Of a DNA stretch of 64,000 bases, positions 4,618 to 34,575 are shown piece by piece. The DNA lies in NCBI GenBank assembly GCA_015501585.1, contig JADNRY010000228.1:1-64000 (forward strand). Direction: 5' to 3'. The position numbers and the translations under genes are program-made. The notes under the pieces were generated by a model. It made no database searches. It saw only the letters and a program-made list of their open reading frames with translations, and was not told the origin of the DNA. The stretch's first letter is position 1. Every line of letters begins with the position of its first letter. This DNA is from Rhodocollybia butyracea. Its lineage: Eukaryota; Basidiomycota; Agaricomycetes; Agaricales; Omphalotaceae.

Positions 4618-4891
4618 GATTAGGCAGGTATTTATTTCTGATTGTAATTGTACACATATGATATTGTAGATTTCTGTACCATTATGCTTTGTATTGCCAT
4701 TTATGGTAAAAAAGAGAGGTTATCTTATTTTAGCGATTATAATAGAACTTCCTCTGTCTAAAGTCTAAAACTCACAAGCTAGACAAAGAGCGTGGCGAAT
4801 CAATTTGTAAACTACAATCGTCTGCCCCTTTTAAATCATGGCCGATAGAGCCACGCTTAAGCTTTGTGGATCTCATTGTCCTCGCCCGTGG

Positions 4892-4898
4892 TATATAA
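4892..4898 (+). promoter_or_regulatory. TATA box of proline-rich gene, copy 1
   Basis: TATATAA lies 155 bp before the start codon at 5053 and is followed by a pyrimidine-rich leader. The same box at almost the same distance precedes the second copy (21595-21601), while the sequence around it differs in places, which supports function. Confidence 0.55.
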
Positions 4899-5052
4899 TG
4901 GGCTGGTTGGTACGACTGGCCTCTTCATTGTCTGCTTTTTGTGCTCCTGCCTAGTCCGTCACTCTTAATCTTCTGCTCCGAATTGTCGCTGAAACCCACC
5001 CAACAGTTATCCAAACGTCGTTCTCGTCGCGCCCAACCAAAAGAAAATCATT

Positions 5053-5523
5053 ATGTCTGGCAAAAATCGTGTTGTTCGTGAACGGTATGTCAACTTGCAG
5101 CATCTCCCTCATCTACCCCTGCTCACACCACATAACAGAAGGAACGCCGTCGTTGATCTAGAGATATCACAGCATCTACCAATGAACCAGCTTCCGCCTA
5201 TCCAAGGCCTTTCTTCTCCTTCTCCCATCCAACTCCCCAGCATATCTCAGCTCATGCCACCCATCCATCTTCCCGCTCCGAACTCACAAGTCCCTGCTCA
5301 TCAGCCCGCCATCAATCCTGCTCCTGCGTATCCCCCGGGTCTGGGTCCAGATCTTCGACGCCAAAAGGCTCACGCGCCCACACGCTATACGTTCGGTAGT
5401 TCGCAGGTCCCTGCTCATCTTCGCGTTCCGGGCATCGTTATGTCGGATGATTATCTTTATGGTCCACAGAACCTACGGAAGGCACCGGGATCTCCTTCTC
5501 TTCATCCTTTGAGCAAGCCTTGA
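5053..5523 (+). CDS. Small proline-rich protein, copy 1
   Basis: Spliced model join(5053..5084, 5139..5523), 138 aa, starting MSGKNRVVRERRNAVVDLE. The 54-nt intron (GT at 5085, AG at 5138) keeps the frame even if unspliced. In copy 2 the intron is 53 nt, so only splicing keeps both proteins alike; this is strong evidence for the intron. The protein is rich in Pro, Ser and Gln with repeated LPPIQ/SPIQLP-like segments, then a YPPGLGPDLRRQKAHAPTRY block conserved in all copies. It has no signal peptide, membrane segment or known domain; function unknown. It sits between the membrane-protein gene and a divergent BTB gene, and this three-gene order recurs in the array. TATA box at 4892. Confidence 0.65.
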   Translation: MSGKNRVVRERYVNLQHLPHLPLLTPHNRRNAVVDLEISQHLPMNQLPPIQGLSSPSPIQLPSISQLMPPIHLPAPNSQVPAHQPAINPAPAYPPGLGPDLRRQKAHAPTRYTFGSSQVPAHLRVPGIVMSDDYLYGPQNLRKAPGSPSLHPLSKP

Positions 5524-5957
5524 GGGGAAGCGCTGCGGTCTCATTAAACAGAGTCAATACACCCTCGTTGTCACTCGCCCGTCTTTTTATGATTATGTCG
5601 TTACGTTATGTTCTTTATGCAAATAGAGCTCTGTTTCTTATATGTACTTATGCCTTCTCTGTGAATTAATCGATTTACTGCCCCGTAGAATACTCCAACT
5701 CCCGCTTAAATCGAATAACCCATGTCTTCTTTTGCGCATTCAGCCGTCTATCCTGAATGAGAATGGGTTCCAGACTCTTGATATTACCTTCTCGATGCCT
5801 TTATCAGGAGATAAGTACACTTCCATCGCAGCTCCGACAGCAAACAATTGATATCCGTAAGCCCCGCCAAAGGAGTTTCAGCACTAATCGGTTCATGACC
5901 AGTCTTTCAGCATGCTGAATCCTATTTTACGATCTGGCAGGGGGAGTAAATAACATT

Positions 5958-6874
5958 TCATTTAGTAAAGCAGTCAGATATGTTCGGAGAGAACTCTGGG
6001 ATCCCTTCGACTATTCGAGTCACAGCCCGCTCCCACTCAGCGAATGCTTCGATGCAACAAGAGTTTTGGTCGCCATCGCCATCCTTGAGCTCTTGGAAGA
6101 TACGATGATAATTAGCTGGTATCAGACAACTTGTTTTGTCAAACCGGCCCCTGAGGATCTGCACTATACTGCGTCGCCACCGGTTACACGCATGGTCGGT
6201 GGGAGGCCGTATAGCCTCCCGAAGTGCGTTAGACCATCGCAAATTTTGCATGATCTGTCGTCATCGTCACAACCGGGGAAACGGGATCATACTGTTGACA
6301 CGTACCCAGCCCGGCAAGTAAGGCGAACCCATTAAACGCTTCCCAATTTCTTCAATCGGTACATCCATGAGCTTCGGGTAGGCGGCAGCGATAAAGTCTC
6401 GGTCGAGATGCCTTGCCGAGTGCTCCAGAATTCTCAGAATTTGCTCGCGATCAGAGAGAAATCGTCTGGGGGAGAATATCTGACATTGACATTGGCAACA
6501 GTGAGGGGATGTGTTCCACTCACAGCCTAAAATTGAGTTTATAGATCGGGATCGCATTGTAAACGTGATACTTTTCAGCCGCTTCTGCAAAACGCATCAT
6601 GGTGTCAAATGCAACGTCGTCCAAAGTTGGGTGCGTCTCGCAGTGCATGAATTTAAACAGAATTCCAAGGGTTTCAGAATCTTCCGGGAGTTCTACCGGT
6701 GTGCCCGACTCGACAAGTAATTCTGCTGAAGGAAATGCTCCAGAAAACATCTCGAGTTCTTTCTTATTCATCTTGAACAGGACATTATCTGAAGATTGTA
6801 TTTCTGGACAATAGTGAGCGATTTATTTTTTCCATTTTACCAGAGTGCCTACCAACATCCATAGTGACTGACAT
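5958..6874 (-). CDS. BTB/POZ-type protein, paralogue A
   Basis: Model complement(join(5958..6254, 6306..6465, 6524..6803, 6853..6874)), 252 aa. Exon 1 is only 22 nt. Intron phases are 1, 2 and 0, and the same boundaries work in paralogues B and D. Residues 8-95 form a divergent BTB fold: SSDNVLFKMNKKELEMFSGAF, then VELPEDSETLGILFKFMHCE and AEAAEKYHVYNAIPIYKL, where the usual SDG..F.VH.. strand is altered. The C-terminal half is helical and Cys/Trp-rich with no name. BTB proteins of this type are greatly expanded in mushrooms and are usually thought to be protein-interaction or CUL3-adaptor factors; no function is shown here. The stop is TGA, so TGA is a normal stop in this genome. Confidence 0.75.
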
Positions 6875-7335
6875 TAGTCGTGGAATGGTTCTTGGAGAAA
6901 AGATGTGGCGCCAATGCCTCAAGGCTCAAGTTCACCTCACGTCCAGCTGCGCACGATCGACACGAGCTGGCCATGAGGCTGCGATGACAGTCACCTTTTG
7001 CTACCTTCCACACGTTGGTGTAAAGCCAGCGATCAATCAGCGAAGAATGACGATAGTCAGATAGAGTAAATCTGGTCTGGGAAGGATATCAGTGAATGTG
7101 TTCTGAAATCTTGAGACTTGAATGCTGCCCTTTCTGTGGAGAGTCTTTGTCGTGGGAGCTCCTGCGCGCGCGTTGGCGGCGGGCTCGAGCGTCTGATTAC
7201 TACAAGGTTTGCGAAAGGAGCTTTGGTACTATGGCTCTCCGATTCATGACAAGTGATTCAAGTAATCATTAGTAGACCGCAGTTTTTCACTATCCCGGGC
7301 TCTATTTTATGATATGTGACTGGCGGGACCATAAA
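6875..7335. repeat. Duplicated intergenic spacer beside BTB genes
   Basis: This spacer recurs at about 24634-25150, including the stretch GAGAGTCTTTGTCGTGGGAG and the block before GATATGTGACTGGCGGG. In the second place the spacer runs on into the 3' end of BTB paralogue D. Here it is cut off near 7335 and joined to membrane-protein coding sequence, so 7335 is a recombination breakpoint. No gene is seen inside it. Confidence 0.6.
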
Positions 7336-7418
7336 CGACATTCCGGAGCAGGAGGAGGAGCAGACGGCGGTGGAAGGCATGAGCGAGGTTGGAGGGTACA
7401 CGCGCGCGCAAACACAGA
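7336..7418 (+). pseudogene. Membrane-protein gene copy 2, left fragment
   Basis: This matches the acidic tail of the gene at 3181-4617 (Glu/Gln-rich, then MSEVGGYTRAQTQ). It begins abruptly at about 7336, where the BTB spacer ends, so the signal, Ser-rich and transmembrane parts are absent. It stops at the AGA target duplication (7416-7418) of the large insertion and resumes at 21077. A 5'-truncated, insertion-split pseudogene. Confidence 0.75.
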
Positions 7419-7579
7419 CACTGCGGGGGTTACCCGATAATCCGGCCTGAAAATTTTTGAGAAAATGCTAGGATTAGGTGTCAATATCCTCAGCTATTCC
7501 TGAACAGAAATTTCTACATAAGTATAGATGCATTTTGTAATTATTATTATAGACATAGCTAAGGAATTTCCAAACTAGC

Positions 7580-7779
7580 TGTAACGGCTACGCCGTTACT
7601 GGTCTTAAGGCGCTGCGTCGCCATTTAATTTCTTTATATTCAAATATATTCATTTTTCTATATACTGCATACCGTATGACTTACATAAGTAAGTCTTCTT
7701 TTATACTGGTACACTACATGCTATAAAGCTTGTCGTGTTCACTCGTGTGATTTAAGCAACGCCTCGTAGAGGCCTTACA
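7580..7779 (+). repeat. 5' LTR of gypsy element A
   Basis: 200 bp, TGTAACGGC...GGCCTTACA. It opens with an 8-bp perfect stem (GTAACGGC 7581-7588 with 7592-7599) and holds others, for example GCCTC/GAGGC near its end. I see no difference from the 3' copy at 19852-20051. Confidence 0.93.
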
Positions 7780-8240
7780 CTTTTTTGAACATCAAGTAGC
7801 ATTATACGCTTACCGTTGTTTAAAAGTAAAAGATACAGTACGCAGTACAATATCAATCATATTCATCAAAAATCCTCGCAATCAGCTTCTTTCGATCATT
7901 AAGAACTTCTGTTAAGAAATTCACTTCCATTCTAAGCCTTTAAAACGCTCAGATGACTTCACCGAGTCCAGAGACAGCGAATAATCGCACATCTGATAAT
8001 AAGGATGCCACGTCACAGAACGATTCCCACACGGTCAAACCGTCAGAGGAAAAAACGAGTGAGCCTGAAAAGCTCCTCATAAAATTAACAGAGGAAATAC
8101 CTCAGCAAGGAAAAAATCCTACGACGACGACTGAAAACAACAGTCGATCAGAAGGCAGTCAAATGACTGCCATAAAAGAACCAAGAGACGATGTCTCTAT
8201 AAATGAGAAAGCGCTGGATTCAATAACAGACCTTGCACAG

Positions 8241-8767
8241 TGTAAGAGCCCTGACTCTTAATGCCTCAGACCATGAGCAACATCAGGAAAAGGTGTTTTT
8301 GCCTAGGTGACCCCAGAGTGGCCTAAAGCAAACTAGGTGACCTATGAATCCTATGGCATCCTAGGAATTTGGGCTTGTCCCTTGCCAGTCAAGGCTCTTG
8401 AGGACTCCCTAGGCAAGCCTAGGTTTGCCCAGGTTTGCACAGGTGCTCCTGGGGAACTCCTGGGGAACACCTGGGCAAACCTGGGCAAACCTAGGCTTGC
8501 CCTGGGTTTGCCTAGGATACCCTAGGGAATCCTCAAGAGCCTTGACTGGCAAGGGACGAGCCCAAATTCCTAGGATGCCATAGGATTCATAGGTCACCTA
8601 GTTTGCTTTAGGCCACTCTGGGGTCACCTAGGCAAAAACACCTTTTCCTGATGAAGATCTCGTTCTATTAGAGAAATAGACCGAAACAAGTAGGTGGTAT
8701 GAGGATAAGAGTGAACTAATTATGTAATATCGGCGCTAACGGCAATGAACGTGCCGTAGGCGTTACA
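8241..8767 (-). repeat. LTR of nested element, split by a MITE
   Basis: The 152-bp LTR is interrupted at 8281-8653. The halves 8241-8280 and 8654-8767 match 9942-10093 except for three substitutions (C/A, C/T and T/C). Confidence 0.85.
8281..8653. mobile_element. 373-bp palindromic MITE
   Basis: Ends are CATCAGGAAAAGGTG and its exact complement. Nearly the whole element folds on itself, with CCTAGG motifs repeated through both arms and a short GC-rich centre. The other LTR of the host element shows the empty site (GAGCAAGATC), so the target was AA, which is now present on both sides. It has no coding capacity. The two-base AA duplication does not fit the TA of Tc1/mariner, so the superfamily is open. 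Confidence 0.8.
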
Positions 8768-8941
8768 CATGCCCCCTAGATTGACCCCACAGGTCCATCT
8801 TACCCAAAAAAAAACAAAAGAGAAAGATGGAAAAGGGAAAACATAACAAAGAGAAACATACAGTCATCTAATAGGTAACGTACGATGTAGTATGCTGGCA
8901 ATTTCCATAAGTGCAGAAGAAGAGAAAGTGTCCTGTGAAAA

Positions 8942-9898
8942 TCACCGGATTCTCTGGATGCTGACACTAAGTCCAGATTGAGATGGTGGTGGCACATTGG
9001 AGACAGTAGATCTCCAGCGCCATGAATGGGAGCATTGATTGGGAGCACAAATATGGTGATGGGGAGTTTCAGTGGGTGAAGGTGATGGCATGAGTGTACC
9101 AGATTGGGATGGGCAATGACTTGAACGAAGCAAGAGCGAACCAAACGCACCATACACATTGTGTTTGACACATTTACGAAGGCCTGTTGGTGGAACAGCA
9201 GTCACAGGGGCAACATAAGGCACAGGTGTACACTCGGTTGGAGTGTTTGAGAGATGAACATGAGCTGGCGGTGCGCCACCTGTGTGTTCGAGCCCCATGA
9301 CATGTTCATCCATGAATACTTTGAGTTTCCGGCCTGCTTTCCGCAGTTCAACCACCTCCCGTGCAAACTCTGAGGTTGGTTGGAGTTGAAATGAAGGGGA
9401 AGTGGGTTTGGAGGGTGAAACCAATGTCAGAGCATGTGGAGACGATTTCAATGCGTTCAATGCGTTTGAAGCGAGCGTGGGAGTCGGTGATGAGGCGGTA
9501 GGAGCGGTCAAAGGTGATGGAGAACTCGGAGCAGGAGGTGGTGTTTGAGATTTGGACAGTTCCATCCCAAACTCTTCTCCCAGTCTCTTAATAGACTCTA
9601 TCATCTGAAAACAGACCTCTGCCTGGAAACCTTCCTCCTTCACTGCCCAGCAACACCTTAATGTTGAATCCTGCACCACTGCCTCTGCCAAATTCCTACC
9701 AGCCACTGAAAGACCATGTTGTTCCCAGAGCTGCTTAAAGTTGACTAGCAGCTGTTGAATTCCCTGGGAGGAGAAGTCCAGGATCCCAGAGATGTGTGAG
9801 AGAGGATCATGAGGGAACATAGAAAGGATTTGAGAAAGAAAAGAGTAAGCCAGAGCCATGACAGAGTCATGGCTTGAGTTGTGCTGTTGTGTGGTCAT
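8942..9898 (-). CDS. 318-aa gag-like ORF of nested LTR element
   Basis: An uninterrupted frame from ATG at 9898 to 8942 fills most of the element's interior. The N-terminal third is helical (SFLSQILSMFPHDPLSHISG, then IQQLLVNFKQLWEQHGL). The middle is Ser/Pro/Thr-rich, and a basic helix (EFAREVVELRKAGRKLKVF) precedes a His/Pro-rich end. There is no zinc knuckle, protease or RT. In this position a gag-like packaging protein is the natural guess, but no family motif proves it. The intact frame contrasts with the broken host element. Confidence 0.6.
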   Translation of the reverse strand: MTTQQHNSSHDSVMALAYSFLSQILSMFPHDPLSHISGILDFSSQGIQQLLVNFKQLWEQHGLSVAGRNLAEAVVQDSTLRCCWAVKEEGFQAEVCFQMIESIKRLGEEFGMELSKSQTPPPAPSSPSPLTAPTASSPTPTLASNALNALKSSPHALTLVSPSKPTSPSFQLQPTSEFAREVVELRKAGRKLKVFMDEHVMGLEHTGGAPPAHVHLSNTPTECTPVPYVAPVTAVPPTGLRKCVKHNVYGAFGSLLLRSSHCPSQSGTLMPSPSPTETPHHHICAPNQCSHSWRWRSTVSNVPPPSQSGLSVSIQRIR

Positions 9899-9941
9899 AT
9901 TGCTGTAATAGTCCTATTCAGGACAAGGTTGCTCAAAAAAG

Positions 9942-10093
9942 TGTAAGAGCCCTGAATCTTAATGCCTCAGACCATGAGCAAGATCTCGTTCTATTAGAGA
10001 AATAGACTGAAACAAGTAGGTGGTACGAGGATAAGAGTGAACTAATTATGTAATATCGGCGCTAACGGCAATGAACGTGCCGTAGGCGTTACA
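9942..10093 (-). repeat. LTR of nested element, uninterrupted copy
   Basis: 152 bp, TGTAAGAGCC...GGCGTTACA on the plus strand. It supplies the empty site for the MITE in the partner LTR. The AA at the insertion point is followed by GATCTCG. Confidence 0.88.
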
Positions 10094-12887
10094 CACAGGT
10101 CTTAGTAAATGCTACAGGGCATATGCTGAAAATCGCGGAAACGAATCAGCAATCCCTGAGCGAATTCACATCGGCAATGCATCAATTGAATGCACGATTA
10201 AACGAAAAAGACGAAGAGAAGTCTTTGTCCAAGTCATCGACAAAGTCGACAGACAGTAGTGATCGTACTGGGATTGCCATGCCAGTACCTAGACTGCCGG
10301 ACATCTATAGGAATACACTGTTCTCGAACGCCTCGACAGGAAAATGGAAAGATTCCATGCTCAATGTATCACAGGCAATAGGTCCATCATCCATAGCACA
10401 TAGAAACTATGTGGGATTTGGACAAGTAGGAGAATTACCTCCTACAATAGGCAAATTGCTAATAACACAGCGAGGCTATACAGACTCACGTCAAAGATGT
10501 CCGTCATCGCTACCAGATACGCCGACACCTACGTTCCTTGCAGGAACAGGATATACACCTAAAGTGAGACAAAGTCCCACTGGGAGAACTTCTCCAGCAC
10601 CAAGAGGACCGAGGTCATTCCCGATACCGCCCAAATCCAGGGCTACAACACCAAAGTCGAATGACTTCATATTTGAAGAGCCAGAAATCATATCTGACTC
10701 TGCGGCGCAACTTATGGATCACATTTGTAATGCATTTGAAGTGTTGGCAACACCATCAACGCCCATAAATATATTGTCCACATTTGTGGATGACAAAGCT
10801 ACGATTAAAATGGAAGCATTCAGCGTGGTGATCCCACCAGCAAAACAGACAATTACAGAAAGCCCAGAAGATCCGGGTAACAAAAGCGATACAATCGTAG
10901 AACTACTAGAGCGGTTTGGATTAAACCAAACGCCAACGCAAGTTCCTAAAAGGAACAAAACAAAGGATCTCCCGAAAAGAGAATCCATACTGAATTAGCG
11001 ATGCAACGCTTGTGCAATAAGAGCTTCCGAGAAACCGGAAAAGCCTCGGAATTCTTCCCAGACCAAATGGTTGGGTTCAACACGGATGGACTTCCGGTCG
11101 ATAAATTCAACACACCCAAAGAGGTGTGGATACGCAAACAAGACAGTGCGCAAGATGCAGGTCCTTCTAAAAGTGGGGGAGGACCACCTCGAAAAACACC
11201 TACGAGAGGAGCTCCAGGAGCACCCAACGACGGTGATGACAGCTCAGACTCCAGCGGAGATGAGCACAAACGCAACAACGATAAAAATTGTCAAAGCACA
11301 CCATGGGATGATGATTCATCCCAAAACGATACAGATTTGGATGTCACAGATTCGTCAAACGAATCGTGGATTGGAGATATTCTCCAACCTAATAAGAAAT
11401 TCAGTAATAGCAAGAAGAAGAAGATGCGACGAAAAGTAGCATCACAACTTTGAGCAAAATCTGCAGATGATGATCGTCGCAAACTGTGGCAACACCAAGT
11501 ACACAAAGTGTACAGAAAGCAGATACATGAACATGTAGGCACTGCACTTCCTCCATTGGAGGGAGTAAAGAATATCAAAGTACCATCACCAGAGAGCTAC
11601 AAAGGTACTCCCGATGTAGAGGTATTTGAAAGGTGGCTATTGTCACTCCTTTGATGGTTTGTAGCACACCGCTATTGCGGTCCAGCTTATGATAGCGCAA
11701 GATTACAAATCTTAGGCATGTTTCTAAAAGAAAAAGCACTAGATTGGTACAACGACAAAGTTGTTGGTGCACACAGGACCACAATTAAGTGGACCAGTGA
11801 AGAAGCCATTATTGGCTTATTCGATAGATGCGTTCAAGCATCTACAATTCATCAAGCTACTCAGCAGTTTGAGTCAATCACTTACTCACCTGTTAAGGGA
11901 GTACGAGATTATCACTCAACACTAGTACAATGGGCATCAAGAATGCAACATCCACCGCATTCATATGATATGAAAATGTGTTTCGTTAAAGGATTGCCTA
12001 TGTCAATCCTTGAAATACTTATAGACAGGGGAATAATCCCTGAATACGCGAAATTCAAGACTATCGTCAAAGCGGTTACTCGCATTGAAGATAATCGCGC
12101 ACTACACGATTACTACGTGTCAGGCAAGCAAAAAACAAGCACACTGAGCTCGAAATATGTTGCAAAACGCGCTATTGCGGAACGAGGAGCAAGTACCCCT
12201 CCCGCTAGAACGTATACTGCAGCAGCAGTACCAAAAACCCAACAAAGGGTACAGTTAGTAAAATATACTAGCAAAGGGAAGAGACCAGTTAAATTTGGTA
12301 ACTCTTTCCATGGAACAGGACAAGTGTCGAAGACACCGTCTAAAGAAGAAGCAGTTTCTAGGAAACTATGCTTCTGTTGCGGCAAGCCAGGTCATTTTGC
12401 AAATGACTTGACATGCGAAAGGCATGGACAACCTCGATTGTACGCCATTCAGGAAGACAAGCTGGAATCAGCTAGTCAAGATGTCAATCCACAAGAAAAC
12501 CTCGAAGAGGATCTTGAATATCCTCCAGCACTTCAACCCGACGAGGATGAAGATGAGGACAAGTCTGAAGGAGAATACTTCCTTGAGATGTATGAAGAAG
12601 AATATGTCGGTCGACTATATGACGACAACGACGACTTCCAAGAGTACTTGGGTCATATTCATGACCCTTACATTGAAATCAATCCTCTAGAGGACTGTGG
12701 ACCGGCAGTATGCCTAGAGGATGACTGGGACAATGACACGTTCTTGTCCCTCGATCCTCAAAGCCACCAGATACAACTGGATGGCACTGATCGTATGGCG
12801 GTTATGAACACGCCCAATGAAGAGCCTAAAACCAATACGGGTGAAGGCATTCTTAAGTCTAGTAGACTTATGACCAGACCTGACTGA

Positions 12888-15800
12888 GGTCCAATCCAAA
12901 ATTGCCGTCTTATGACGGCAATCATTGAAATTGCAGGAGTAGAAGCATTCACGCTATTCGACTCTGGTTGCACAATCGAGGCTTTAAGCCCCACATTTGT
13001 TCGATTAGTGAACATCAAAGTACACCAATTGGCGGACCAACATTCGCTACAATTGGGAACTGTAGGAAGTAAAGCCAAATTTAATTTTGGCGCAAATGTA
13101 CATACCTCCTATGGAGGTATAGACGATAAAGTATACTACGACATTATTAATGTCAATAGATACGACACTATCCTTGGTACGCAATTTATGCGTAAGCACG
13201 GCATCAAACTCGATTTCGAGAGAGATGCCATATGCATTAAAGGGAAGGTAGCACCTTCTCTTTCTGTGGGGGAGGACGCGGTAGAGTTTTCCCGACGCAC
13301 AGCAATGAAACGTGAAGCTCTCAATGAGAAATTCAGAAGAAACGAGACTCAAGCTAGCAAAGAATGACTAGCTGCAGCTACAACTTCTAAGAAGTCAGAG
13401 CATAAATCGAAATCCACAGTGGAAATCGAGACGATAGTAGACGAAGAACATCTTTGGTCTGAAATGCAACGCTCTGCAAGGAGCTTCCCTCATAACTTCC
13501 CAGTTGTACTGGAAAGCTACAACAAGGATGATAATTCAACCTCGCCCAAAATAAAGGAGTTATCTGCAGAAGATTTCGATAAATACGTCGAAATCATACA
13601 AGAATTCTCTAGAGAATACTTTCCTCGCAAAATAGAGGAACAAGCGGAGCTAAGAGCTCAGCAAGATATGGAAGAGAATATATCTCAACCAATGCCGGTT
13701 GAACAAACAGGCAACAAAACAAATGATAATCCTAATCAGGATAATCACGATACAGGGATTAGCTATGAATACATAGCTATCCCAAATACTAACTCGACAC
13801 AAACAAGATCTAAAGATCAAGTTCAAACAAGTACTAATTGAAAAGGATTGAGAAGTAAATCTCGATCCATCTCTCATCAAAGACGAAGGAGACCCGTTCG
13901 AGTCAAGGTGTGGAAATTCCCACTTGACGACATAGAGTTTGAAGAACACTACGCTCATGGTCATGCAGACAATGAGCATGAAAAATTATACGCCATCCAA
14001 GAGGAAGACGTTATGGACTTCTCGGCTCTACCAGAGTGAGGCCCGTATACGGATGAGCAAATACCTTTGCTCCGCGCTCGTATTATACACGAGCATATGG
14101 ACATCCTAGGAGGAGTACCACTGGTACTCCCACCATTTCGAGATTAATCATCGGATTAATCTCATTGACAAACAGCATAAGTATAACTACTATATGCCAA
14201 GATGCCCAGATCATCTTAAGACTCAGCTTAGTGATAAGCTTGAGAAATACACCGGTGCTAACTGGTGGATTCAACAAGCTGTTCCACAAGCAGCTCCAAT
14301 GCTTTGCATTCCAAAGAAAAATGGTACTCTTCATACCATTATCAACTATCGTCAGCGTAATGCTAACACGGTAAAGGATGTAACTCCTTTCCCAGACCAA
14401 CACAACATCCGTACAGATGTTGCCAAACACAAGTATCAATCTAAAATCAACCTCAGCGATGCATACGAACAGACTTGAACTGAGCCTGGAGATGTATGGA
14501 AGACTGCATTTGCATGCGTCTTTGGGACATTCGTTAGCAATGTCATGATGATGGGAGACTGTAATGCTCCCGCCACTTTTCAACGATTGATGACCTACAT
14601 CTTTTGTGACGCTATTGGACGATATGTCCATGCTTATTTAGACGATATATTCGTCTTTAGTAATACACTCGAAGAGCATGAAAAGCACGTCAGAGACGTA
14701 CTAGAACGACTCAGGAAACATCACTTGTTTCTAAGGGCAGCAAAGTGTGAACTTTACTCTGAGTCTGTAGACTGCCTTGGGCATGTCATCGACGATAAAG
14801 GTATCCATGCGGATACCAATAAGATGTCAAGAATTTGCGAATGGCAAACCCCGCGCATGTACAATGATGTACAGCGCTTTCTGGGACTTGTACAGTACAT
14901 TGCACCGTACATGCCCGAAGTAGCCCAGTTCACTGGGCCACTTTCAATTATGGTACGGAACAATGTTCCGTTCGTATGGATGCCAACACACAAAGTATGT
15001 TTTCAAAACATTAAACGTTTAGCATCAAAGGCTCCAATACTGAAGCCAATTGATCCAAGTAAAGATGAACCTATATGGGTTATCTGTGACGCCTTCGTAT
15101 CAGGAGTCGGAAGTATGTACGGCCAAGGCCCTACTTGGCAGACGTGTAGACCTGCGGGATTTATGTCGCGCAAATTCACAGCTGCACAACATAATTATAG
15201 AGTCTTTGAATTGGAGACTCTTGCAATCCTCGAAGCTCTTCTCAAATGGGAAGATAAAGTTCTTGGATATTGTATACATGTGGTCACAGACCACAAAGCA
15301 TTAGAATTCTTCCTTACACAAAGGAAGCTTTCAAGTCGTCAAGCACGCTGGATGGAATATCTATCCAGATTTGACTTTGATATTTGTTATATCAAAGGTA
15401 TAACAAACAAAGTAGCAGATGCGTTATCGCGTTACTACGAATCCGACATGCCTAATGAACATCATGAGGCACATGAATATGTCAATGCAGATATTCGCAT
15501 TGACCGAAATCTAGACAACCTTCCACAAGGAAGAATCGAAGAATTAGTTAGCGAGCATCTTGCTAGCATGAACACTCGTTGATCTGCTCGACTTCTTCAA
15601 AAGAAGAAGCAAGTAAATCCTGTAGCTGAGACTATAGAAGCTCAAGACACTGAAGCAGCAGAATTACAATCTGCCGTTAAAGAAAAGGAACCAACAGTTC
15701 CTGTTCCCAATACTATGGAAGAAGATATTACTATCTTCAACTCTCGCGCAAGAGGTGAAGAACCGCTTGCTAGTCATGCCGAAAAGGATGATTTTATAAA

Positions 15801-17280
15801 GAACATTAAGCGTTGCTACGCTAATGATCCATTATTCTCAAAAGTGCTCAATAGTACTGAGCACCATAAGCCATTCTCAGTCGAGAACGGCCTCATATAC
15901 ACTGTAAACCGAGGCAACGAAAAAGTTCTTTGCATTCCTAACGGTAAAACTGTTAAAGGACAGAGCTTGAGAGGCATAATCGCCAAACAAGCCCATGAAG
16001 TATTAGGACACTTCGGAGGTCAACAAACCTCCGATTACATCCACCGATGGTACTGGTGGCCAAGGGTCAACAGTAACATCGAGGAATTTTGTAAGGCATG
16101 CGTTGAATGTCAACGCGCCAAAACTACTAATAGGATGCCAACTGGCCTCCTACATGCACTACCGATACCCATGAAACCATGGGAATCAATCGGAATGGAC
16201 TTCATTGGTCCATTCCCTGAATCACAAGGATACGACTACCTTTGGGTAGTCATCTGTCGATTAACTTTGCGGGTACATGTAATACCCGTAAAAACAACAA
16301 TAACTGCAACGCAGTTATCATGGATCTACGTCAAAGAGATCGTAAGACTTCACGGATTACCGAAGTCTATAGTCTCTGATAGAGACCCGAAGTTTACTTC
16401 ACGCTGGTGGCGTGAAGTTCATCATTTACTAGGAGCTAAACTCCTAATGTCTACTTCGTTCCATCCACAAACGGATGGAATTACTGAGTGAGTGAATAGG
16501 TCCATTGGACAAATTCTTTGCACTATGGTCAATGCCGACCAGAAGAATTGGGTGGACAAATGTCCACTAATGGAGTTTGCGTTGAACTCCAGTATCAACG
16601 AAAGCACAGGGTATGCACCATTTGAACTTGATGGAGGGTACATGCCTTGCATGATTTGCGAAGTACCCAGCGGTACTCAAACACCACCAGGTGTTCATGA
16701 ATTTGCAGATCGTGCATTACAGCACCTGCAAGATGCTCACGACGCGATTATAGAATCGCGCGTATATCAAGTCTATCACGCTAATCAGCGTAGACGACAA
16801 GAGCCGGAGATTCAACTAAATGATTTAGTGTATCTTTCAACTAAAAATTTGAACTTGCCGAGGGGGAGGGCATCTAAGCTACTTCCCAAGTTCATTGGAC
16901 CATACCCCATTGTTGAGGTACATGAAGACTCCTCAAATTATCGAGTAGGTCTGCCAACAGAGTTGGCTAAGCGTGGAATTCATAATAACTTCCACGCAAG
17001 TCTATTGCGAAAGCACCATCCGAATGATGATGCACTATTTCCTATGCGTTCCGTTGCGGAACCATACGATTTCGGAGAACCGTCAACTGTGGAATGGCTC
17101 GTTGACGAGATAATCGACCATCATTGGGATGGTCGAAAACTCATGTTCCAAGTCAAATGGAACCTAGGCGATATTACCACCGAAACTTACAATAATTGTA
17201 AGGATTTAACAGCTCTAGACAGATATCTAGAACTACAAGCAGTAGATGACTGGCGTCATCTACCGCAAACACAAACTTAA
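12888..17280 (+). pseudogene. pol: pol of gypsy element A
   Basis: It continues the gag frame past TGA 12885. Protease: LFDSGCTIEALSP (about 12955). RT: the region from about 14194 has the motifs INYRQRN, AYEQT and YLDDIFVFS (about 14636). RNase H: VTDHKALEFF (about 15282). Integrase: an intact HHCC finger (H, H, CKACVECQ, about 15995-16115) and catalytic D, D, E in MDFIGPFPES, SDRDPKF and HPQTDGITE. C-terminus: a chromodomain-like block (EWLVDEIIDHHW...FQVKWNLGDIT...ALDRYLEL). In-frame TGA at 13365, 13839, 14037, 14476, 15580 and 16489, plus one base lost near 14143. Two of the stops (14476, 16489) replace an Arg conserved in Ty3 pol. Confidence 0.9.
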
Positions 17281-17477
17281 CAGCGCCTAATTGCATAGTT
17301 ACTATGCAAACTAGCGCCTAAATTCCAAGGAAGTATTACTTCCAAATCGGATACGTTGATCTAAAGATCAATGTATGAGTGGCTGTGTCATAATATGACT
17401 GTAACTGATCGCTTCGCCTCGAGGCCGGTTAATAAAAGTAGGAATGTTTTCCAACTTTTCCTTAATTCTTGACCACC
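17281..17477. other. Hairpin-bearing spacer between pol and ORF3
   Basis: No coding sequence. It has three strong inverted repeats in 80 bp: TTGCATAG (17291-17298 with 17302-17309), GGAAGT (17329-17334 with 17338-17343) and TTGATCT (17356-17362 with 17365-17371). It may hold a promoter or RNA signal for the downstream ORF, but nothing specific is recognised. Confidence 0.5.
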
Positions 17478-19739
17478 ATGTCTTCTGGCAACGCCAAAGA
17501 CAAAATGCCCGTAAAACGAGCTATAATCAGTCAGGACGCGTCGCGAAGCGACGAAAACAACGACGATGGGCCAAACAACGCCATCATGCACCCACCGGAA
17601 CCACGCCACTCCGCATTCCCTGCCCAGCTGCAAATGCAGCAAGGGCCCACATTCAACGCGACAGGTAATACCATGCATCATGGTGTGCCTATGGCACAAC
17701 CTACACTTACAACTGGCTACGCCAGTCAAATATCACAAGTAGGCTGGACATTCCATCCAAACCTACATTGCGTAATACATGGAGCGGATGGAGTTAGCCC
17801 CGCATGCCCTGTATGTAGGGCTTTCATAGACCACGGCTTACAAGCCGTTGGTAACGCTGACTGAAGTTGGACGGCGGCTAGCGAAGATCTGGCGCGTTAT
17901 CACGTGCACAGTATCAACCCACCTGCTGCTCTGCAGCAAGAAGACGCTGAATCAGCGGTCAACCTAGCTTTGAAACTAGGCGCGGCAAAACGAGACGTCA
18001 ATAAACTCGACTGTCGCTTGCGTGATACGCAGCGTGACTACGACGATCTGTTACAAGATCATCGTGCTCTACAAGTAGAGTACGATAGAATAAGAGATGA
18101 GGTCGATGACCTCCGACAAGAAGAAGAGAGTTCTCGACGCGGTCAAGGCTCTCCTCATTACAGAGACGCAAGCCAGTCCGGCAAGCGTCATCGTGTCGAA
18201 CGATCGCCCTCAGAAGAGAGCGAATACCCAGCAGATGAACCCGCTGGCAATGATTCTGGACCTATGGACCAGGATCCCATGACTGCACCAGTTGCAGTTG
18301 ATACATCCGCCGTCCTGGCACCTGAGGTGCCTGGACCCGTTGCAGAACTACCAGTTCTCCCTCATAGGAGGGAGGACAGTGGTTACTTCGCGTCTGACCG
18401 TTGGGTTAGATATGGCATTGATGCCAACAACGCCGAGGCAAACGACAATCGTCGTTTACCCATCCCTATATCCGTGTCCAATGTGTGATCTGTCCAAATG
18501 GACAAGTCAACAAAAGCACTTAATCCAACTAATCAGTTGGAGGTAATCTGGTACCTAAGGTACCTTCGTGATCCTGCCCTAGCCCAGAGATGCGGCGTAC
18601 CCCGCAGTAGGCTATGGAGGATTCATCATCTCCTCGCAAGTATAATGCGAGAAGTGAACAAGATTGATCCATCGGAGCGATCAGAATGGCAACATTGTCT
18701 TGCCACAAATTGGTTCATCGCCGATTTTGTGCGTGAAGCAGCCACGGAACGCGAAGCTCGAGAAGCACTCGAGCGAGACAATGCTCGTATCGACGACGAT
18801 ACGGCCAATCCAAGCGTGAAACCACGCAAGACTAAAAACAAAGGCAAGGGCAAAGCCCCAGCCCCCATGCAGATAGTGGTAGAAGGGTCTCATGACACTA
18901 CTGCCAATATCAATGTGCCTAGTGTGCGCAATCCAACGCGGCTGTCCTCACCTGAGGAATGGGCTGCTTACCTCGCTAGCCCCTCTGGGGCTAAAACTCC
19001 TTTAGCCGGCGTATACCGGCGCCGTTCTGATAGAGCTATCAGTATGCGTACTCTTCGAGGACGCATATTGGTAACCTCCCGCAGGCCAACCATGCCTGCT
19101 AATACGCCACCTCATGTCGCTGCGCGATATTATTTGTTGGCGGCTGAAGTTATACTTCGGCCAAACTATTATAACAATTTGGTCACTAGTGGCCAAACTA
19201 CTATTGCTACTGGGACACCTGTCCCTCCAATCGCGTTTGACGACTCGTTCAACGCCACCATGCTGTCTGTGGCAAGGTTCTTCGCTGAACAAGGGCTGAC
19301 GGTCGCAGACATCGAGGACGCAGTATTTTACGCTGCTAATTGGGTATATTCATACGCACCGAGTAGCTCAGACATAATATTCGCCGCTAACGCGTTACGC
19401 GCTAGCTTCACTTCAAATGTACGCCTACCATTAGGGTACAACAAAGACTACTGGGTTCCTGGGGTAGGAATTGTTCCTGGCCCCACACAAGTTATAAATG
19501 CACACATTCATAACAACGCTGTTTCAAATACAGCATCTTCAAGTAACACGGGGGCAGTCGCTCCCCCAACTACATCCGCAACGACAACGTCGTTTGCACA
19601 TAACGCCACCCGGGCCGTCGTGGCAAACAATTCAGCCAGCATTGCATCCTCTGCTGCAGTGCCCGCTACATCCACCGCTCCTTCCACCGAAGCAGCACCT
19701 ATGTCCGCTGAAGCCGTTCAGCAGATGGATGAGACGTGA
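17478..19739 (+). pseudogene. Extra ORF (ORF3) downstream of pol in element A
   Basis: One frame of about 754 codons from ATG 17478 (MSSGNAKDKMPVK) to TGA 19737, with internal TGA at 17862 and 18486. Seen in order: a polar start; a Cys/His cluster (HPNLHCVIHG...CPVCRAFIDHG, about 17750-17835) that could bind zinc; a coiled coil (about 17960-18120); an acidic Pro-rich stretch; a Lys-rich KPRKTKNKGKGK patch (about 18820); a folded-looking region (about 18940-19500); and an Ala/Thr/Ser-rich tail. It lies where env-like genes sit in some Ty3 elements, but I see no signal peptide, membrane anchor or furin-type site, so I do not call it env. It shares the hairpin pattern of pol. Function unknown. 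Confidence 0.7.
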
Positions 19740-19851
19740 GTCTTGAAGGTTATGCCAACCTTCGAGGCGCCCCGCGTTACGCCAACGCTGGAGTCTCCTA
19801 TCCATATAAATCATCGCCTCGCTTCTGCGAAGCTTGTCTTGCGGGGGAGGG

Positions 19852-20051
19852 TGTAACGGCTACGCCGTTACTGGTCTTAAGGCGCTGCGTCGCCATTTAA
19901 TTTCTTTATATTCAAATATATTCATTTTTCTATATACTGCATACCGTATGACTTACATAAGTAAGTCTTCTTTTATACTGGTACACTACATGCTATAAAG
20001 CTTGTCGTGTTCACTCGTGTGATTTAAGCAACGCCTCGTAGAGGCCTTACA
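19852..20051 (+). repeat. 3' LTR of gypsy element A
   Basis: 200 bp, apparently identical to 7580-7779 and immediately preceded by the polypurine run ending at 19851. It is followed by the CTAGC duplication (20052-20056), after which the foldback element resumes. Confidence 0.93.
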
Positions 20052-20056
20052 CTAGC

Positions 20057-21076
20057 TCTTGCACAATCTTGAGGTTTTTATTTTGAATAGCTCTCTTTGG
20101 AAAACTATGAGTATTCCACCCCAGAATATCTTGGAAAATTTCTTCATAAAATGACATAGATTATAGCAAGAATATTCAGAATAATCTTCACATGACTCTA
20201 GATTATCACTATGGATGTTACCTAGAGCTTAGCCAAAGGTTACAGTATGATTATTAAAGATATTTACATTTTAACATGAGCAGGAAAACTAATGATTTTC
20301 TTGGAATAGTCTACGCGTGGAAAACATGAGGTTATTTTAAATCATCTGGCTCAGATTATATGTACCTGACGTCGAGACATCGATGATGTCTGGACATCGG
20401 GATATGTTACTGTCGGGACATCGTGGATGTCAGGATGTGTGATAGTGTCACAGTGTGAGGAGGTGGGATGCCGGGTTCAAAGGGCTTTGGTGTATAGACC
20501 ACCAGATCCAGACGCCCCTCAATCATGACATCCCGACTCTCCTGTGATAAACCACTGTTATGCGCAGATGTCACGTATCCCGACGTCTAGACATCATCGA
20601 CATCTGGTACATATAATCCGAGCCAGTTTATGTTAAAAAACCTTCTGCTTTCCGCATGCGGATTATTCCAATAAAATCTTTAGTTTTCCAGTTCCACTTA
20701 CTATATGAATATTTTCAATAATCTCATAGTAACCTCTGGCTAATCTTTAGGTAAAATTGTTGGTGATAATTTGGACCTATGTGGAGATTAGTTTAAATAT
20801 TCTTGCCATATTCTATGTCACTTTATGAAGAAATTTCCCAAGATATTCTGTGGTAGGATACTTGTAGTTTTCCAAAGAGAGTTATTCAATATGATCGTTC
20901 CAAGATTGTACAATAGTTAGTTTAAAAAATCCTTGACTATGCCCAGAGTAATAATGACAGAATGTATATGTACTTATTCAGAAAATTCTGTTCAAGAATA
21001 GCCAAGACTATTGACACTTAATCCTTGCATTTTCTCAAAGTTCTCCCGGCTGGATTATCAGGTAAACCCCGCAGTG
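20057..21076. repeat. Right part of the foldback palindrome
   Basis: 20057-20345 pairs with about 20627-20950, and the last 160 bp pairs with 7419-7579. The centre begins CTGGCTC and ends GAGCCAG (20346, 20626) and is itself roughly palindromic with short CATCG-type repeats. Arms are about 80-85% matched by eye, so this layer is older than the gypsy inside it. No gene. Confidence 0.75.
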
Positions 21077-21309
21077 AGAGCCGGTTGTCTGCACCGCGGA
21101 CAGATCGGCAGATGGAACTTGAGGAGAGGATACATGACTTGCAGGCCCAGATGATATCGCTCAGCGATGGCACATCCGGGACCTCAGTTGACAGCCAGGA
21201 TTCCGAGATACAGGGGCTGAAATCTAAGATAAAACAGCTGGAAGAGCTACAATCTTCAGATTGGGCGCTTGAGCAATCTAATCAGAGGCCAGACGACCTG
21301 TTATCATAG
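21077..21309 (+). pseudogene. Membrane-protein gene copy 2, right fragment
   Basis: After the AGA duplication the coding tail resumes at the exact point where 7418 left off. It runs to TAG at 21307 with only a few changes from 4390-4617, including the coiled-coil segment. The 3' flank is also almost identical to that of copy 1. Confidence 0.8.
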
Positions 21310-21594
21310 GATTGGGCAGGTATTTATTTCTGATTGTAATTGTACACATATGATATTGTAGATTTCTGTACCATTATGCTTTGTATTGCCATTTATGGTA
21401 AAAAAGAGAGGTTATCTTATTTTAGCAATTATAATAGAACTTCCTCTGTTTAAAGTCTCGAGCAGATAAAAAACTGATGAGCTAGACAAAGAGCGTGGCG
21501 AATCAATCCGTAAACTACAATCGTCTGCCCCTTTTCAATCATGGCTGATAGAGCCACGCTTAAGCTTTGTGGATCTCATTGTCCTCGCCATAGG

Positions 21595-21601
21595 TATATA
21601 A
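21595..21601 (+). promoter_or_regulatory. TATA box of proline-rich gene, copy 2
   Basis: TATATAA lies 153 bp before ATG 21754, matching copy 1. Confidence 0.55.
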
Positions 21602-21753
21602 TGGGCTAGTTGGTGCGACTGGTCTCCTCATTGTCTTCTTTTGTGCTCCCCCCTAGTCAGTACCTCCTAATCTTCTGCTCCGAATTGTTGCTAAAACCCG
21701 CCCAACAGTCATACAACTTCATTCTCATCGCGACCAACCAAAAGAAAATCATT

Positions 21754-22223
21754 ATGTCTGGCAAAAATCGTGCTGTTCGTGAAAGGTACGTCAACTTTCA
21801 GCAGCACACTCATCTACCCCGCTCACACCACATAACAGAAGGAACGCCGTCATCGACCTAGAGATATCGCAGCACTTACCAATGAACCAACTTCCGCCTA
21901 TCCAAGGCCTTTCTTCTCCTTCCCCCATCCAACTCCCTAGCATATCTCAGCTCATGCCACCCATCCATCTCCCTCTTCCGAATTCACAAATCGCTGCTCA
22001 TCAGCCCGCCATCAATCCTGCTCCTGCGTATCCCCCAGGTCTAGGTCCAGATCTTCGACGCCAAAAGGCTCACGCGCCCACCTGCTATACATTCAGTAGC
22101 TCGCAGGTCCCTGCTCATCTTCGCGTTCCGGGCATCGTTACGTCGGATGAGTATCTTTATGGTCCACAGAACCTACGGAAGGCACCGGGATCTCCTTCTC
22201 TTCATCCTTTGAGCAAGCCTTGA
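21754..22223 (+). CDS. Small proline-rich protein, copy 2
   Basis: Spliced model join(21754..21785, 21839..22223), 138 aa, with the same exon sizes as copy 1. The intron is 53 nt, so an unspliced reading would shift frame. Splicing restores the product MSGKNRAVRERRNAVIDLE and the conserved YPPGLGPDLRRQKAHAP block. About 90% identical to copy 1 by eye. No known domain. It appears intact and keeps its TATA box, so it may be expressed. Confidence 0.65.
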
Positions 22224-22483
22224 GGGGAAGCGCTGCGGTATCATTAAACAATTGCAATACACCCTCGTTGTCATTCGCGCATCTTTTTATGATTATGTCG
22301 CTACATTATTACATTGAACCTTCACACGACACGGTCTTTGTCTTTGTCTTTGTTGTAGTGCTAGTAGCTCCTCCACCGGATCACTCATTTAGGTTTATTA
22401 ACTATCACACCACCGGAGTCTTCCAGCCTCCTGAATCCTATTTTACTTACGTATGTATTACTGGCACGGGCATAAGTGATGTT

Positions 22484-23393
22484 TTATTCAGGAAAGTAGT
22501 CAGATATGTTCAGAGAGAACTCTGGAACCTTTTCAACTCTTCGGATCATAGCCTGCTCCCACTCAGTGAGTGCATCGATACAACAAGAATGACAGTGTTT
22601 GTCACTCTTGAACTTTTCGAATATACGCTGACACTGAGCCGGTACAAGACAACTTGTCTTGTCAAATTGGCCGATGATCTGCACTATATTGTATCCCCAC
22701 CATTCACACATATGGCTGTTGGGAGGCAGTACAGCATCACTGAATGCATGAGACCATCGCAAATTTTGCATGATCTGTCTTCATTGTCACAATCGGGCAA
22801 ACAGGATCGTAAATGTTATTGAAACGTGCCCAGCAAGTCAAGTACGGCGAGCCCATCAAACGCCTCCCAATTTCTTCAATTGGTACATCCATGAGCATCG
22901 GGTATGCAGCAGTGATAAACTCTCGGTCAAGACGCCTTGCAGAGAGCTCCAAAATTTCCAGAATTTGCTCGGGGTTGGAGAGGAATCGTCTGAAGTAAAA
23001 TTTTGACGTTGGCTCCGGTGAGGGAATGTGTTCCACTTACTGCCTAAAATTGAGCTTATAGATCGGAATCGCACTGTAAACATGGTACTTTTCAGCCGCT
23101 TCCGAAAAACGCAGCATTGTGTCAAATGGAACGTGGTCCAAAGTTGGGTGCGTCTCGCAACGCATGAATTTAAAGAGAATTCCAAGCGTTTCAGAATCTT
23201 CCGGGAGTTCTACGGGTGTGCCCGATTCGACAGGTGAGTCTGCCGAAGGAAATGCTCCAGAAAACATTTCGAGTTCTTTCTTATTCATCTTGAACAGGAC
23301 ATTATCTGAAGATTGTATTTCTGGACGATGGTGAGCGATTTAACTCTCCATTTTACCACACAAATGCTTACCAACATCCGTAGTGACTGACAT
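22484..23393 (-). CDS. BTB/POZ-type protein, paralogue B
   Basis: Model complement(join(22484..22774, 22830..22989, 23041..23320, 23372..23393)), 250 aa, with the exon lengths 22/280/160 of paralogue A. The third intron would begin GC, not GT (TGG followed by GCACGT at 22829), while A and D have GTACGT there, so this is a probable GC-AG intron. The BTB region keeps SSDNVLFKMNKKELEMFSGAF and VELPEDSETLGILFKFM. The frame is intact throughout. Confidence 0.7.
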
Positions 23394-24251
23394 TAGTCGT
23401 GGAATGGTTCTTGGAGAAAAGATGTGGGGGGCTTGGCAAGCTCGCCTTACTACTCAAGATTGACACGAGTTCTGGGTTGTTCGTGTGACAGTCACCTTTT
23501 GCTAGTTTCCATGCGTTAATGTAAAGCCAGCGATCTAGGCCTAAAGCAGTCCCCTCTATGAGGTTGACGTTAAATAACAAACCTCGATAGAGGAGCCTGG
23601 AAAGCGGCTCCGGACCGTGGCACAAACTTCTTACGGCCGTTTTAGGTTAGGTTTATTGCTAGGAAATAACTTTTACCTTCCGTTTGAGGATTTAGAGGTG
23701 GGAAAAGCACACTTGAGCATGATTTTTGTTCCGTACTTCCGTTTGTATAGCTACTTTTCACTTGTAATGGCTCTTGTATTATCGGTATCCTCGAGCTCAG
23801 ACACTTTCTCGACGCTATTGAGGATCAAATTTTTGAAGAATTGCCTGCAAGGCACAATTATAACGTTTAGCGTCTCGCTTCCTGTTTATCGTCTCGCTAT
23901 TTGTGGTCTCGCAAATGAACTTTGAACAAATACAAGGCTCAGGGCTGTGGATCTCTTGGATCAGAACGTTCAACTGTCGTTCGAGCTTGTTTTAGAGAAG
24001 GGAAGACTGCAATATGGCCCCGAAGACTCCGTACTCAGTACCTGTACCGTAAGAGAAGAATGCTTTGATTTTTGAGTCATTTGGGCCCCGGGCAGTGTTC
24101 TACCATAAGGCCTTAAATAGAAATCTTGAAATCTTGAAGGCTTAAGTCAATTTAAGGCCTTATTTAAGCCATAGGTCAAAATTTTCATTTATTGGCCTGA
24201 GGTAGAGATTTTATACCGACTATAGTGAAATAAAGTTATTAAAAGCCATTG
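23394..24251. other. Spacer, no gene recognised
   Basis: The start shares the BTB upstream sequence but then diverges (about 23430). I see no family motif. A short inverted repeat lies at 24107-24161. Confidence 0.4.
24107..24161. repeat. Short inverted repeat
   Basis: AAGGCCTTAAAT (24107-24118) and its exact complement (24150-24161) enclose 31 bp with a direct AATCTTG repeat. It could be a tiny MITE remnant; no target duplication was identified. Confidence 0.45.
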
Positions 24252-34450: not shown

Positions 34451-34575
34451 TGAGAGAGGTAATGTTGTGAGAGGGGAATGTTGGAGATGAGATGGGATGG
34501 GACGCTGGCGACAAAGTGGCAAGAGACGAGTGAACTGAACCAGCAGCTGGGGACTCGAGTCCGTTCTTTCGTTTC

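What the first reader, a model, noticed from the sequence alone, without database searches (positions are those of the whole stretch)
7580..20051. A retrotransposon packed with short perfect hairpins from LTR to LTR
Gypsy element A carries far more short inverted repeats than chance would give. By eye, an incomplete scan finds 24 perfect stems of 7 bp or more with loops of 1-11 nt; roughly 8-9 would be expected in 12 kb of random sequence. Nine have stems of 8 or 9 bp (about 2 expected): 7581-7599, 14112-14130, 14141-14162, 15383-15407, 16300-16318, 16396-16418, 16459-16480, 16971-16997, 17291-17309. Others include 11305-11322, 11349-11365 next to 11371-11387, 11825-11844, 12391-12407, 14320-14340, 15279-15295, 15309-15327, 15844-15864, 18756-18774, 18786-18803 and 18977-18993. 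They occur in LTR, gag, pol, spacer and ORF3, and mostly use synonymous positions so that pol motifs survive. Element B in the same window does not look like this. I know of no described retroelement with such a pattern. Possible causes: selection for a folded genomic RNA, or a mutational process such as strand switching during reverse transcription that turns imperfect palindromes into perfect ones.
Basis: partly seen in the sequence, partly recalled or inferred. Interest (0 to 1): 0.88.

Follow-up and report, generated by a model that had tools for sequence, protein, structure and literature searches.

The report
Mushroom retrotransposon studded with conserved hairpins
A jumping gene in a mushroom genome carries about ten times more short perfect hairpins than chance along most of its length, a distant sister family keeps many of them in the same places, and its predicted RNA folding is about twice the highest genome-wide value we saw reported for RNA viruses, for reasons still unknown.

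Summary
Element A (7580-20051) has 78 perfect stems of >=7 bp (loops 0-12; shuffles 8.0) and 27 of >=8 bp (2.0). The excess sits at short loops, is specific to inverted repeats and survives codon-preserving shuffles (z 14-20); element B and host DNA lack it. A is a Ty3/Gypsy element of a mushroom, very probably Rhodocollybia butyracea. All 30 loci fetched from its two families (about 77% identical DNA) are enriched. Predicted folding exceeds dinucleotide shuffles by 40% and 48%; highest genome-wide value seen in print: 23.4%. A repeat nested inside A lacks the excess. Between families 26 of 54 alignable stems share a centre (chance 1.9), and double changes favour re-pairing; silent sites in shared stems are conserved. 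I favour selection on the replicating nucleic acid, probably genomic RNA; template switching shows no clear trace in close copies. Against an RNA reading, interior G.U is no commoner than A.C. Function unproven; ten literature searches gave no retroelement precedent.

The parts
7575..7579 (.). target-site duplication CTAGC, 5' copy
   Evidence: read directly
7580..7779 (+). 5' LTR of element A (200 bp, TG...CA), opening with an 8-bp hairpin
8649..10095 (.). nested foreign repeat with 121-bp direct repeats at its ends (8649-8769 and 9975-10095, 97%) and antisense ORF 8942-9898; internal control with little hairpin excess; exact borders not settled
11655..12884 (+). gag-like open frame (no Pfam match; label by position, inferred)
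12888..13364 (+). aspartic protease, PF08284
14479..15579 (+). reverse transcriptase and RNase H, PF00078, PF17917, PF17919
15583..16488 (+). integrase zinc-binding and core, PF17921, PF00665
16492..17277 (+). end of integrase, SH3-like domain PF24626
17865..18485 (+). ORF3 first part, no Pfam match
18489..19736 (+). ORF3 second part, no Pfam match; 6 homologues found, 4 of them named Rhodocollybia butyracea
19843..19851 (+). purine run GGGGGAGGG before the 3' LTR, polypurine-tract-like
   Evidence: read directly
19852..20051 (+). 3' LTR, identical to the 5' LTR
20052..20056 (.). target-site duplication CTAGC, 3' copy
   Evidence: read directly
7581..7599 (.). hairpin 8 bp, loop 3
8154..8171 (.). 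hairpin 8 bp, loop 2
11304..11323 (.). hairpin 8 bp, loop 4
11989..12011 (.). hairpin 8 bp, loop 7
12854..12870 (.). hairpin 8 bp, loop 1
12901..12922 (.). hairpin 9 bp, loop 4
13102..13120 (.). hairpin 8 bp, loop 3
13572..13595 (.). hairpin 8 bp, loop 8
13760..13779 (.). hairpin 8 bp, loop 4
14112..14130 (.). hairpin 9 bp, loop 1; seen also in F2
14140..14163 (.). hairpin 10 bp, loop 4, the longest in A
14955..14971 (.). hairpin 8 bp, loop 1; one compensated pair in F2
15375..15397 (.). hairpin 9 bp, loop 5, overlapping the next
15383..15407 (.). hairpin 9 bp, loop 7
15481..15504 (.). hairpin 8 bp, loop 8
16013..16034 (.). hairpin 8 bp, loop 6
16192..16216 (.). hairpin 9 bp, loop 7
16300..16318 (.). 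hairpin 8 bp, loop 3
16396..16418 (.). hairpin 9 bp, loop 5
16459..16480 (.). hairpin 8 bp, loop 6
16971..16997 (.). hairpin 8 bp, loop 11
17114..17136 (.). hairpin 9 bp, loop 5
17186..17202 (.). hairpin 8 bp, loop 1
17242..17263 (.). hairpin 9 bp, loop 4
17291..17309 (.). hairpin 9 bp, loop 1, in the spacer after pol
19853..19871 (.). hairpin 8 bp, loop 3, second LTR copy; with the 25 above these are 26 of the 27 stems of 8 bp or more, the other (9854-9874) lying in the nested repeat

Best explanation
Element A belongs to a clade of Ty3/Gypsy retrotransposons (two families, F1 and F2, in one mushroom genome) whose replicating copies are kept under selection for a dense row of short, locally folding Watson-Crick hairpins (6-10 bp, loops mostly 3-7, about 13 per kb), built largely by synonymous codon choice. 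Shown: the excess, its specificity, its presence in both families, partly conserved stem positions, conserved silent sites in shared stems, compensatory double changes, and fewer stems in degraded copies. Inferred: that the folded molecule is the full-length genomic RNA, with hairpins that form quickly as it is transcribed and so make it compact, hard to anneal to and possibly faster to transcribe or package, while stems stay far below the length of long double-stranded RNA.
For: Codon-preserving shuffles (200 each): F1 copy L002 58 stems vs 8.4 (>=6 bp, z 17.4) and 35 vs 2.9 (>=7, z 19.7); F2 copy L013 44 vs 6.7 (z 13.7) and 29 vs 2.2 (z 18.6). Folding energy gain over dinucleotide shuffles, 350-nt fragments: L013 48.2% sense/38.2% antisense, L002 40.1/35.6, A 10096-20051 31.9/24.6; B 3.0/1.8, host -0.6/-1.6, nested repeat 7.6/7.2, copia 4.6/6.0 and 0.8/2.9, other Gypsy 6.8/8.5 and 3.6/7.3: a clear sense surplus only in the A clade. 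Stems at the same centre in 26 of 54 alignable cases (random 1.9, codon-shuffled F2 3.7, max 9 of 100). 4-fold sites: all F1 stems 61 of 92 identical between families, outside F1 stems 121 of 269. Double changes re-pair 16 of 25 (null 9.3, p 0.003) and 14 of 24 (p 0.03); in shared stems 7 of 7 and 5 of 8. The conserved pol is the densest part (15.8 stems/kb), open frames 13.4/kb, LTR-leader-spacer 11.5/kb. Stem residues are not less conserved. Loop-closing C...G pairs exceed codon shuffles (0.41 and 0.33 vs 0.23 and 0.22), as expected of folding hairpins. The foreign repeat nested in A lacks the excess.
Against: G.U, which RNA folding tolerates, is not commoner than A.C inside stems (L002 7 vs 8, L013 5 vs 10, L003 5 vs 6), and between families single changes give A.C as often or more (19 G.T vs 28 A.C; 20 vs 27). 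At outer stem ends A.C exceeds expectation over G.T in gag (23:6, p 0.023), pol of A (24:6, p 0.005) and L002 (28:7, p 0.01), not clearly in L013 (23:7, p 0.06) or ORF3 (12:11). Nearest-neighbour step preferences fit RNA hardly better than DNA overall (Spearman 0.56, p 0.09 vs 0.50, p 0.14), and loops show no significant A-over-T surplus. The absolute folding gain of the antisense is nearly as large in L002 (31.4 vs 32.1 kcal per 350 nt). Decay data are mixed: stems and other sites changed alike in F1 copies L007 and L020, but stems changed less in most F2 comparisons (pooled over the 11 F2 copies: 57 of 6399 vs 322 of 25015), which inserted, unselected copies need not show. No function was tested.
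Confidence: 0.5

Rival explanations
1. Mutational origin: during reverse transcription the nascent strand folds back on itself, copies its own first arm and returns to the template, turning imperfect palindromes into perfect ones; the element's reverse transcriptase would do this unusually often.
For: Pairing is Watson-Crick only, with G.U no better than A.C, as copying would give; loops are short and stems local; the excess is limited to one reverse-transcriptase lineage; both coding and non-coding parts are affected.
Against: In 2305 stem comparisons between close copies only 19 have two or more differences all in one arm, against 44 with one in each arm (comparisons are not independent, CpG decay inflates the 44, and only 23 of the copies were used). 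Changes between families are not one-armed (79 vs 65; 54 vs 69). Non-coding parts, free of protein constraint, are not denser than coding and no stem in A exceeds 10 bp. Stem residues are no less conserved than others. Silent sites in shared stems are slower, not merely coupled.
Confidence: 0.2
2. Selection on single-stranded DNA: hairpins in minus-strand cDNA protect it or help strand transfer, so pairing is judged by DNA rules.
For: G.T and A.C are treated alike; A.C on the sense strand is G.T on the minus strand and exceeds expectation at outer stem ends in 3 of 5 sets.
Against: Folding surplus is larger on the sense strand in A, L002 and L013; within equal composition GC steps exceed CG (1.65x vs 1.07x) and TA exceed AT (1.06x vs 0.56x), the RNA and not the DNA order (energies recalled, effect weak).
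Confidence: 0.2
3. Ordinary by-product of retroelement composition or coding pattern, or a local property of this chromosome region.
For: Two copia families in the same genome show about 2.2-fold excess over codon shuffles (92 vs 40.8 stems in 10 loci, all copies of two families) and six Gypsy loci 1.6-fold (43 vs 27.0), so a weak tendency is wider.
Against: Codon-preserving and dinucleotide shuffles, no mirror-repeat excess, element B and host flat, nested repeat at the same place nearly flat, and 30 of 30 family loci on many contigs enriched at least 4-fold.
Confidence: 0.03

Closest known systems
[quoted passage not shown] coronaviruses and hepatitis C virus (PMC7642675, passages seen; PMC3950689, abstract and outline seen)
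   Same: Many consecutive local stem-loops through coding sequence, measured as folding-energy excess over shuffles; made by sequence order, not composition.
   Different: Here an LTR retrotransposon; mean excess 40-48% in pol pieces against 15% for SARS-CoV-2, 7-9% for HCV and 23.4% for a deltacoronavirus as the highest genome mean, though the paper reports a local peak above 50% in one SARS-CoV-2 gene. GORS positions are described as poorly conserved between relatives; here about half the alignable stems share a centre. Pairing here is nearly strict Watson-Crick.
Ty3/Gypsy LTR retrotransposons of Agaricomycetes (homologues named from Mycena chlorophos, Phanerochaete sordida, Trametes)
   Same: LTRs, protease-RT-RNase H-integrase order, SH3-like tail.
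   Different: Hairpin load; six other Gypsy loci and element B of the same genome have little or none. Whether the 53-62% relatives in other fungi share it could not be seen, as only proteins were available.
Quasipalindrome-associated template-switch mutation (PMC7202029, listing and start of abstract only)
   Same: Would give perfect short inverted repeats.
   Different: No one-arm rewriting found between close copies.
Nascent-transcript folding that limits polymerase backtracking (PMC7427326, passages seen)
   Same: Local, fast-folding structure behind the polymerase favours elongation.
   Different: Shown there for RNA polymerase I in vitro and rRNA; no such test exists for this element.

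Membership tests
Ty3/Gypsy LTR retrotransposon | two LTRs, TG...CA ends, short target-site duplication | tested here: met
   200-bp identical LTRs, CTAGC duplication
Ty3/Gypsy LTR retrotransposon | pol order protease, RT, RNase H, integrase | tested here: met
   Pfam matches in that order
Ty3/Gypsy LTR retrotransposon | tRNA primer-binding site after the 5' LTR | not tested
   sequence after 7779 read; no primer match sought
GORS | folding energy well above sequence-order controls along the genome | tested here: met
   31.9% over 28 fragments of A, 40.1% and 48.2% over 11 fragments each of L002 and L013
GORS | stem positions poorly conserved between relatives | tested here: not met
   26 of 54 alignable F1 stems co-centred with an F2 stem, 1.9 expected; 28 others are not
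GORS | structure formed by genomic RNA | not testable with these tools
   no probing data; sense surplus for, lack of G.U preference against
RT fold-back (template-switch) mutation | one arm rewritten as complement of the other in a single step | tested here: inconclusive
   19 of 2305 close-copy stem comparisons one-armed with >=2 changes; few active-phase changes available
RT fold-back (template-switch) mutation | unconstrained sequence more affected than coding | tested here: not met
   11.5 vs 13.4 stems/kb (both LTR copies counted)

The most novel reading that the evidence does not exclude
A retrotransposon lineage carries a second, Watson-Crick-only hairpin code laid over its whole genome and its proteins, kept by selection on the replicating molecule and about twice as strong as the strongest genome-wide RNA structure reported for viruses: a kind of genome organisation not described for retroelements.
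Probability: 0.4. Interest if true: 0.9.

Novelty: new variant of a known kind. Interest (0 to 1): 0.78.

Why it matters
Genome-wide RNA structure is an open puzzle in RNA viruses: it is widespread, its function is debated and it is rarely conserved. Here is an extreme case in a harmless mushroom element, with two sister families, many dated copies, a nested foreign insert as internal control and near-flat sister elements in the same genome. It makes the question of selection against mutation testable by probing, by a polymerase fidelity assay and by comparing relatives. If the cause were instead a fold-back habit of one reverse transcriptase, that would be a new mutational force shaping coding sequence.

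Tried and rejected
Alignment A1 mixed strands, because genome-search loci come in contig orientation; it was thrown away and redone after orienting. Rfam gave no match in the window. ORF3 has no Pfam match and no convincing solved structure. Regular spacing of hairpins was looked for: no clear period. Loop motif: none seen by eye among loops of 3-5; composition only mildly AT-rich, with A over T not significant. Codon register: all three registers enriched. Compensatory changes in decayed copies were set aside, because C>T/G>A changes dominate there and paired CpG sites can change twice independently. Differences per arm between families look under-dispersed, but silent sites are near saturation, so I drew nothing from that. 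Misaligned stretches of L005, L006, L008-L010, L023 and L029 make their rates unreliable, and I quote none of them singly; L023 is in the pooled F2 count. Host RNA silencing: Piwi-domain exons are present; the RNA-dependent RNA polymerase search did not complete, nor the HSP70 control. Helitron control loci could not be cut.
Full report
What is there. A scan for maximal perfect stems with loops 0-12 finds 170 stems of 6 bp or more, 78 of 7 or more and 27 of 8 or more in 7580-20051; ten mononucleotide shuffles give 31.2, 8.0 and 2.0. The excess begins and ends with the element (per 500 bp), is large at loops 1-7 and near background past 12, and stems are short: the longest in A is 10 bp, and pairing beyond a stem's end falls to background after about four bases. 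It concerns inverted repeats only; mirror repeats are at 0.8x, and direct repeats (2.5x) are as common in element B (2.3x).

What the element is. LTRs of 200 bp (7580-7779, 19852-20051) are identical, start TG and end CA, and are flanked by CTAGC. Pfam finds protease, reverse transcriptase, RNase H, integrase and an SH3-like tail in Ty3/Gypsy order in 4 of the 10 frames given; the other 6 have no match. The frames of A are broken by stops. Two homologues of its ORF3 sit on contigs of 705046 and 73948 bp named Rhodocollybia butyracea, exactly the lengths of contigs C223 and C611 of the window's genome, so the host is very probably that mushroom (Agaricales, Omphalotaceae). Family F1 (A and copies) and family F2 are about 77% identical in pol DNA; the next intact Gypsy group in the genome is near 40% in protein.

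Controls. Shuffling synonymous codons: L002 (F1, 1238 codons, open as found) 58 vs 8.4 and 35 vs 2.9; L013 (F2, 1137 codons) 44 vs 6.7 and 29 vs 2.2, for stems of >=6 and >=7 bp. The four element B frames tested show no excess. The repeat nested at 8649-10095 (39 other copies at 96-99% among the 40 matches listed) has 3 stems vs 1.8 in its core and a 7.6% folding excess. All 30 fetched F1/F2 loci are enriched at least fourfold over 5 shuffles each; L001 is A itself and L020 and L024 overlap in one copy. Weaker excess occurs in ten copia loci of two families (92 vs 40.8 codon-shuffled stems) and six other Gypsy loci (43 vs 27.0), so the A clade is the extreme of a wider, weak tendency, and this should be weighed against calling it unique.

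Size of effect. With 350-nt fragments and dinucleotide shuffles (8 per fragment, non-overlapping, so close to but not identical with the published procedure) the excess is 48.2% (L013), 40.1% (L002) and 31.9% (A 10096-20051) on the sense strand and 38.2, 35.6 and 24.6% on the antisense; B 3.0, host -0.6. Codon shuffles give 47.3 and 38.8%. Passages of PMC7642675 give about 15% for SARS-CoV-2, 7-9% for HCV and 23.4% as the highest genome value, with a local peak above 50% in one gene.

Selection or mutation. Of 58 F1 stems in the pol frame 54 can be placed in F2, and 26 share a centre with an F2 stem of 5 bp or more; random placement gives 1.9, codon-shuffled F2 3.7. In the other direction it is 23 of 44. 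At 4-fold sites the families agree in 108 of 239 outside all stems, 61 of 92 in F1 stems, and 39 of 53 and 36 of 45 in shared stems (shared stems are chosen partly for likeness, so the 61 of 92 is the fairer figure). Double changes restore Watson-Crick pairing in 16 of 25 (null 9.3) and 14 of 24 (null 9.2). These speak for selection. Against a fold-back copying origin: one-arm rewriting is rare between close copies (19 of 2305 comparisons with two or more changes in one arm and none in the other; 23 copies used), differences between families fall on both arms, non-coding stretches are not denser, and proteins show no cost. None of these is final: silent sites between families are near saturation and close copies differ mostly by C>T decay.

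Which molecule. For RNA: a sense surplus in the A clade only, C...G loop closure, stacking order within equal composition (weak). Against: G.U is no better than A.C inside stems in L002, L013 and L003, and A.C is in excess at outer ends in 3 of 5 sets, which would be G.T on the minus strand. One count goes the other way: in L013, stems of >=8 bp with at least one G.U are 2.9x over codon shuffles and with A.C 2.1x, whereas in L002 it is 2.2x and 3.5x. I commit to genomic RNA at about even odds within selection, with cDNA as the main rival.

Copies in the genome. Older copies have fewer stems (for example L029 26 in 3661 bp, L006 33 in 4051). In F1 copies L007 and L020 stems changed as fast as other sites (0.037 vs 0.035; 0.041 vs 0.036), but in the 11 F2 copies stems changed less (57 of 6399 vs 322 of 25015, copies not independent), so decay is not cleanly neutral; lower CpG content of F2 stems is one possible reason and was not tested.

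Precedent. Ten full-text searches showed no retroelement with such a pattern; the library lacks most subscription papers, so this is weak evidence of absence. Three papers were opened: passages of two and abstract and outline of one.

Noticed in passing
8649-10095: A separate high-copy repeat (39 other copies at 96-99% among the 40 matches listed) with about 121-bp terminal direct repeats and an antisense ORF of 318 aa lies nested in element A; it looks like a small LTR-type element.
   Followed up: partly
8268-8666: Large inverted repeat, arms 8268-8433 and 8501-8666, 91% complementary, beside the nested repeat.
   Followed up: no
7580-20051: The LTRs of A are identical although its frames carry stops and it differs from copy L002 mostly by C>T/G>A; A may descend from an already damaged parent moved in trans (inference).
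   Followed up: no
43966-51528: Element B, a second Gypsy element with identical terminal 300-nt repeats, has no hairpin excess.
   Followed up: partly
4378-7342, 21070-25973, 27076-30679, 33494-39888: Several locally repeated stretches of host DNA (66-96% alike), one pair of blocks on either side of element A.
   Followed up: no
18489-19736: ORF3 protein: 6 homologues found, four named Rhodocollybia butyracea and two from JGI sources (63% and 62%); no domain known.
   Followed up: partly
L063-L072: Two copia families of the same genome show a roughly twofold short-hairpin excess over codon shuffles, concentrated at loops 3-8 when pooled with the Gypsy controls.
   Followed up: partly
10096-17280 and L002: The first non-Watson-Crick pair outside a stem is A.C far more often than G.T (23:6, 24:6, 28:7), unlike in ORF3 (12:11).
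   Followed up: partly
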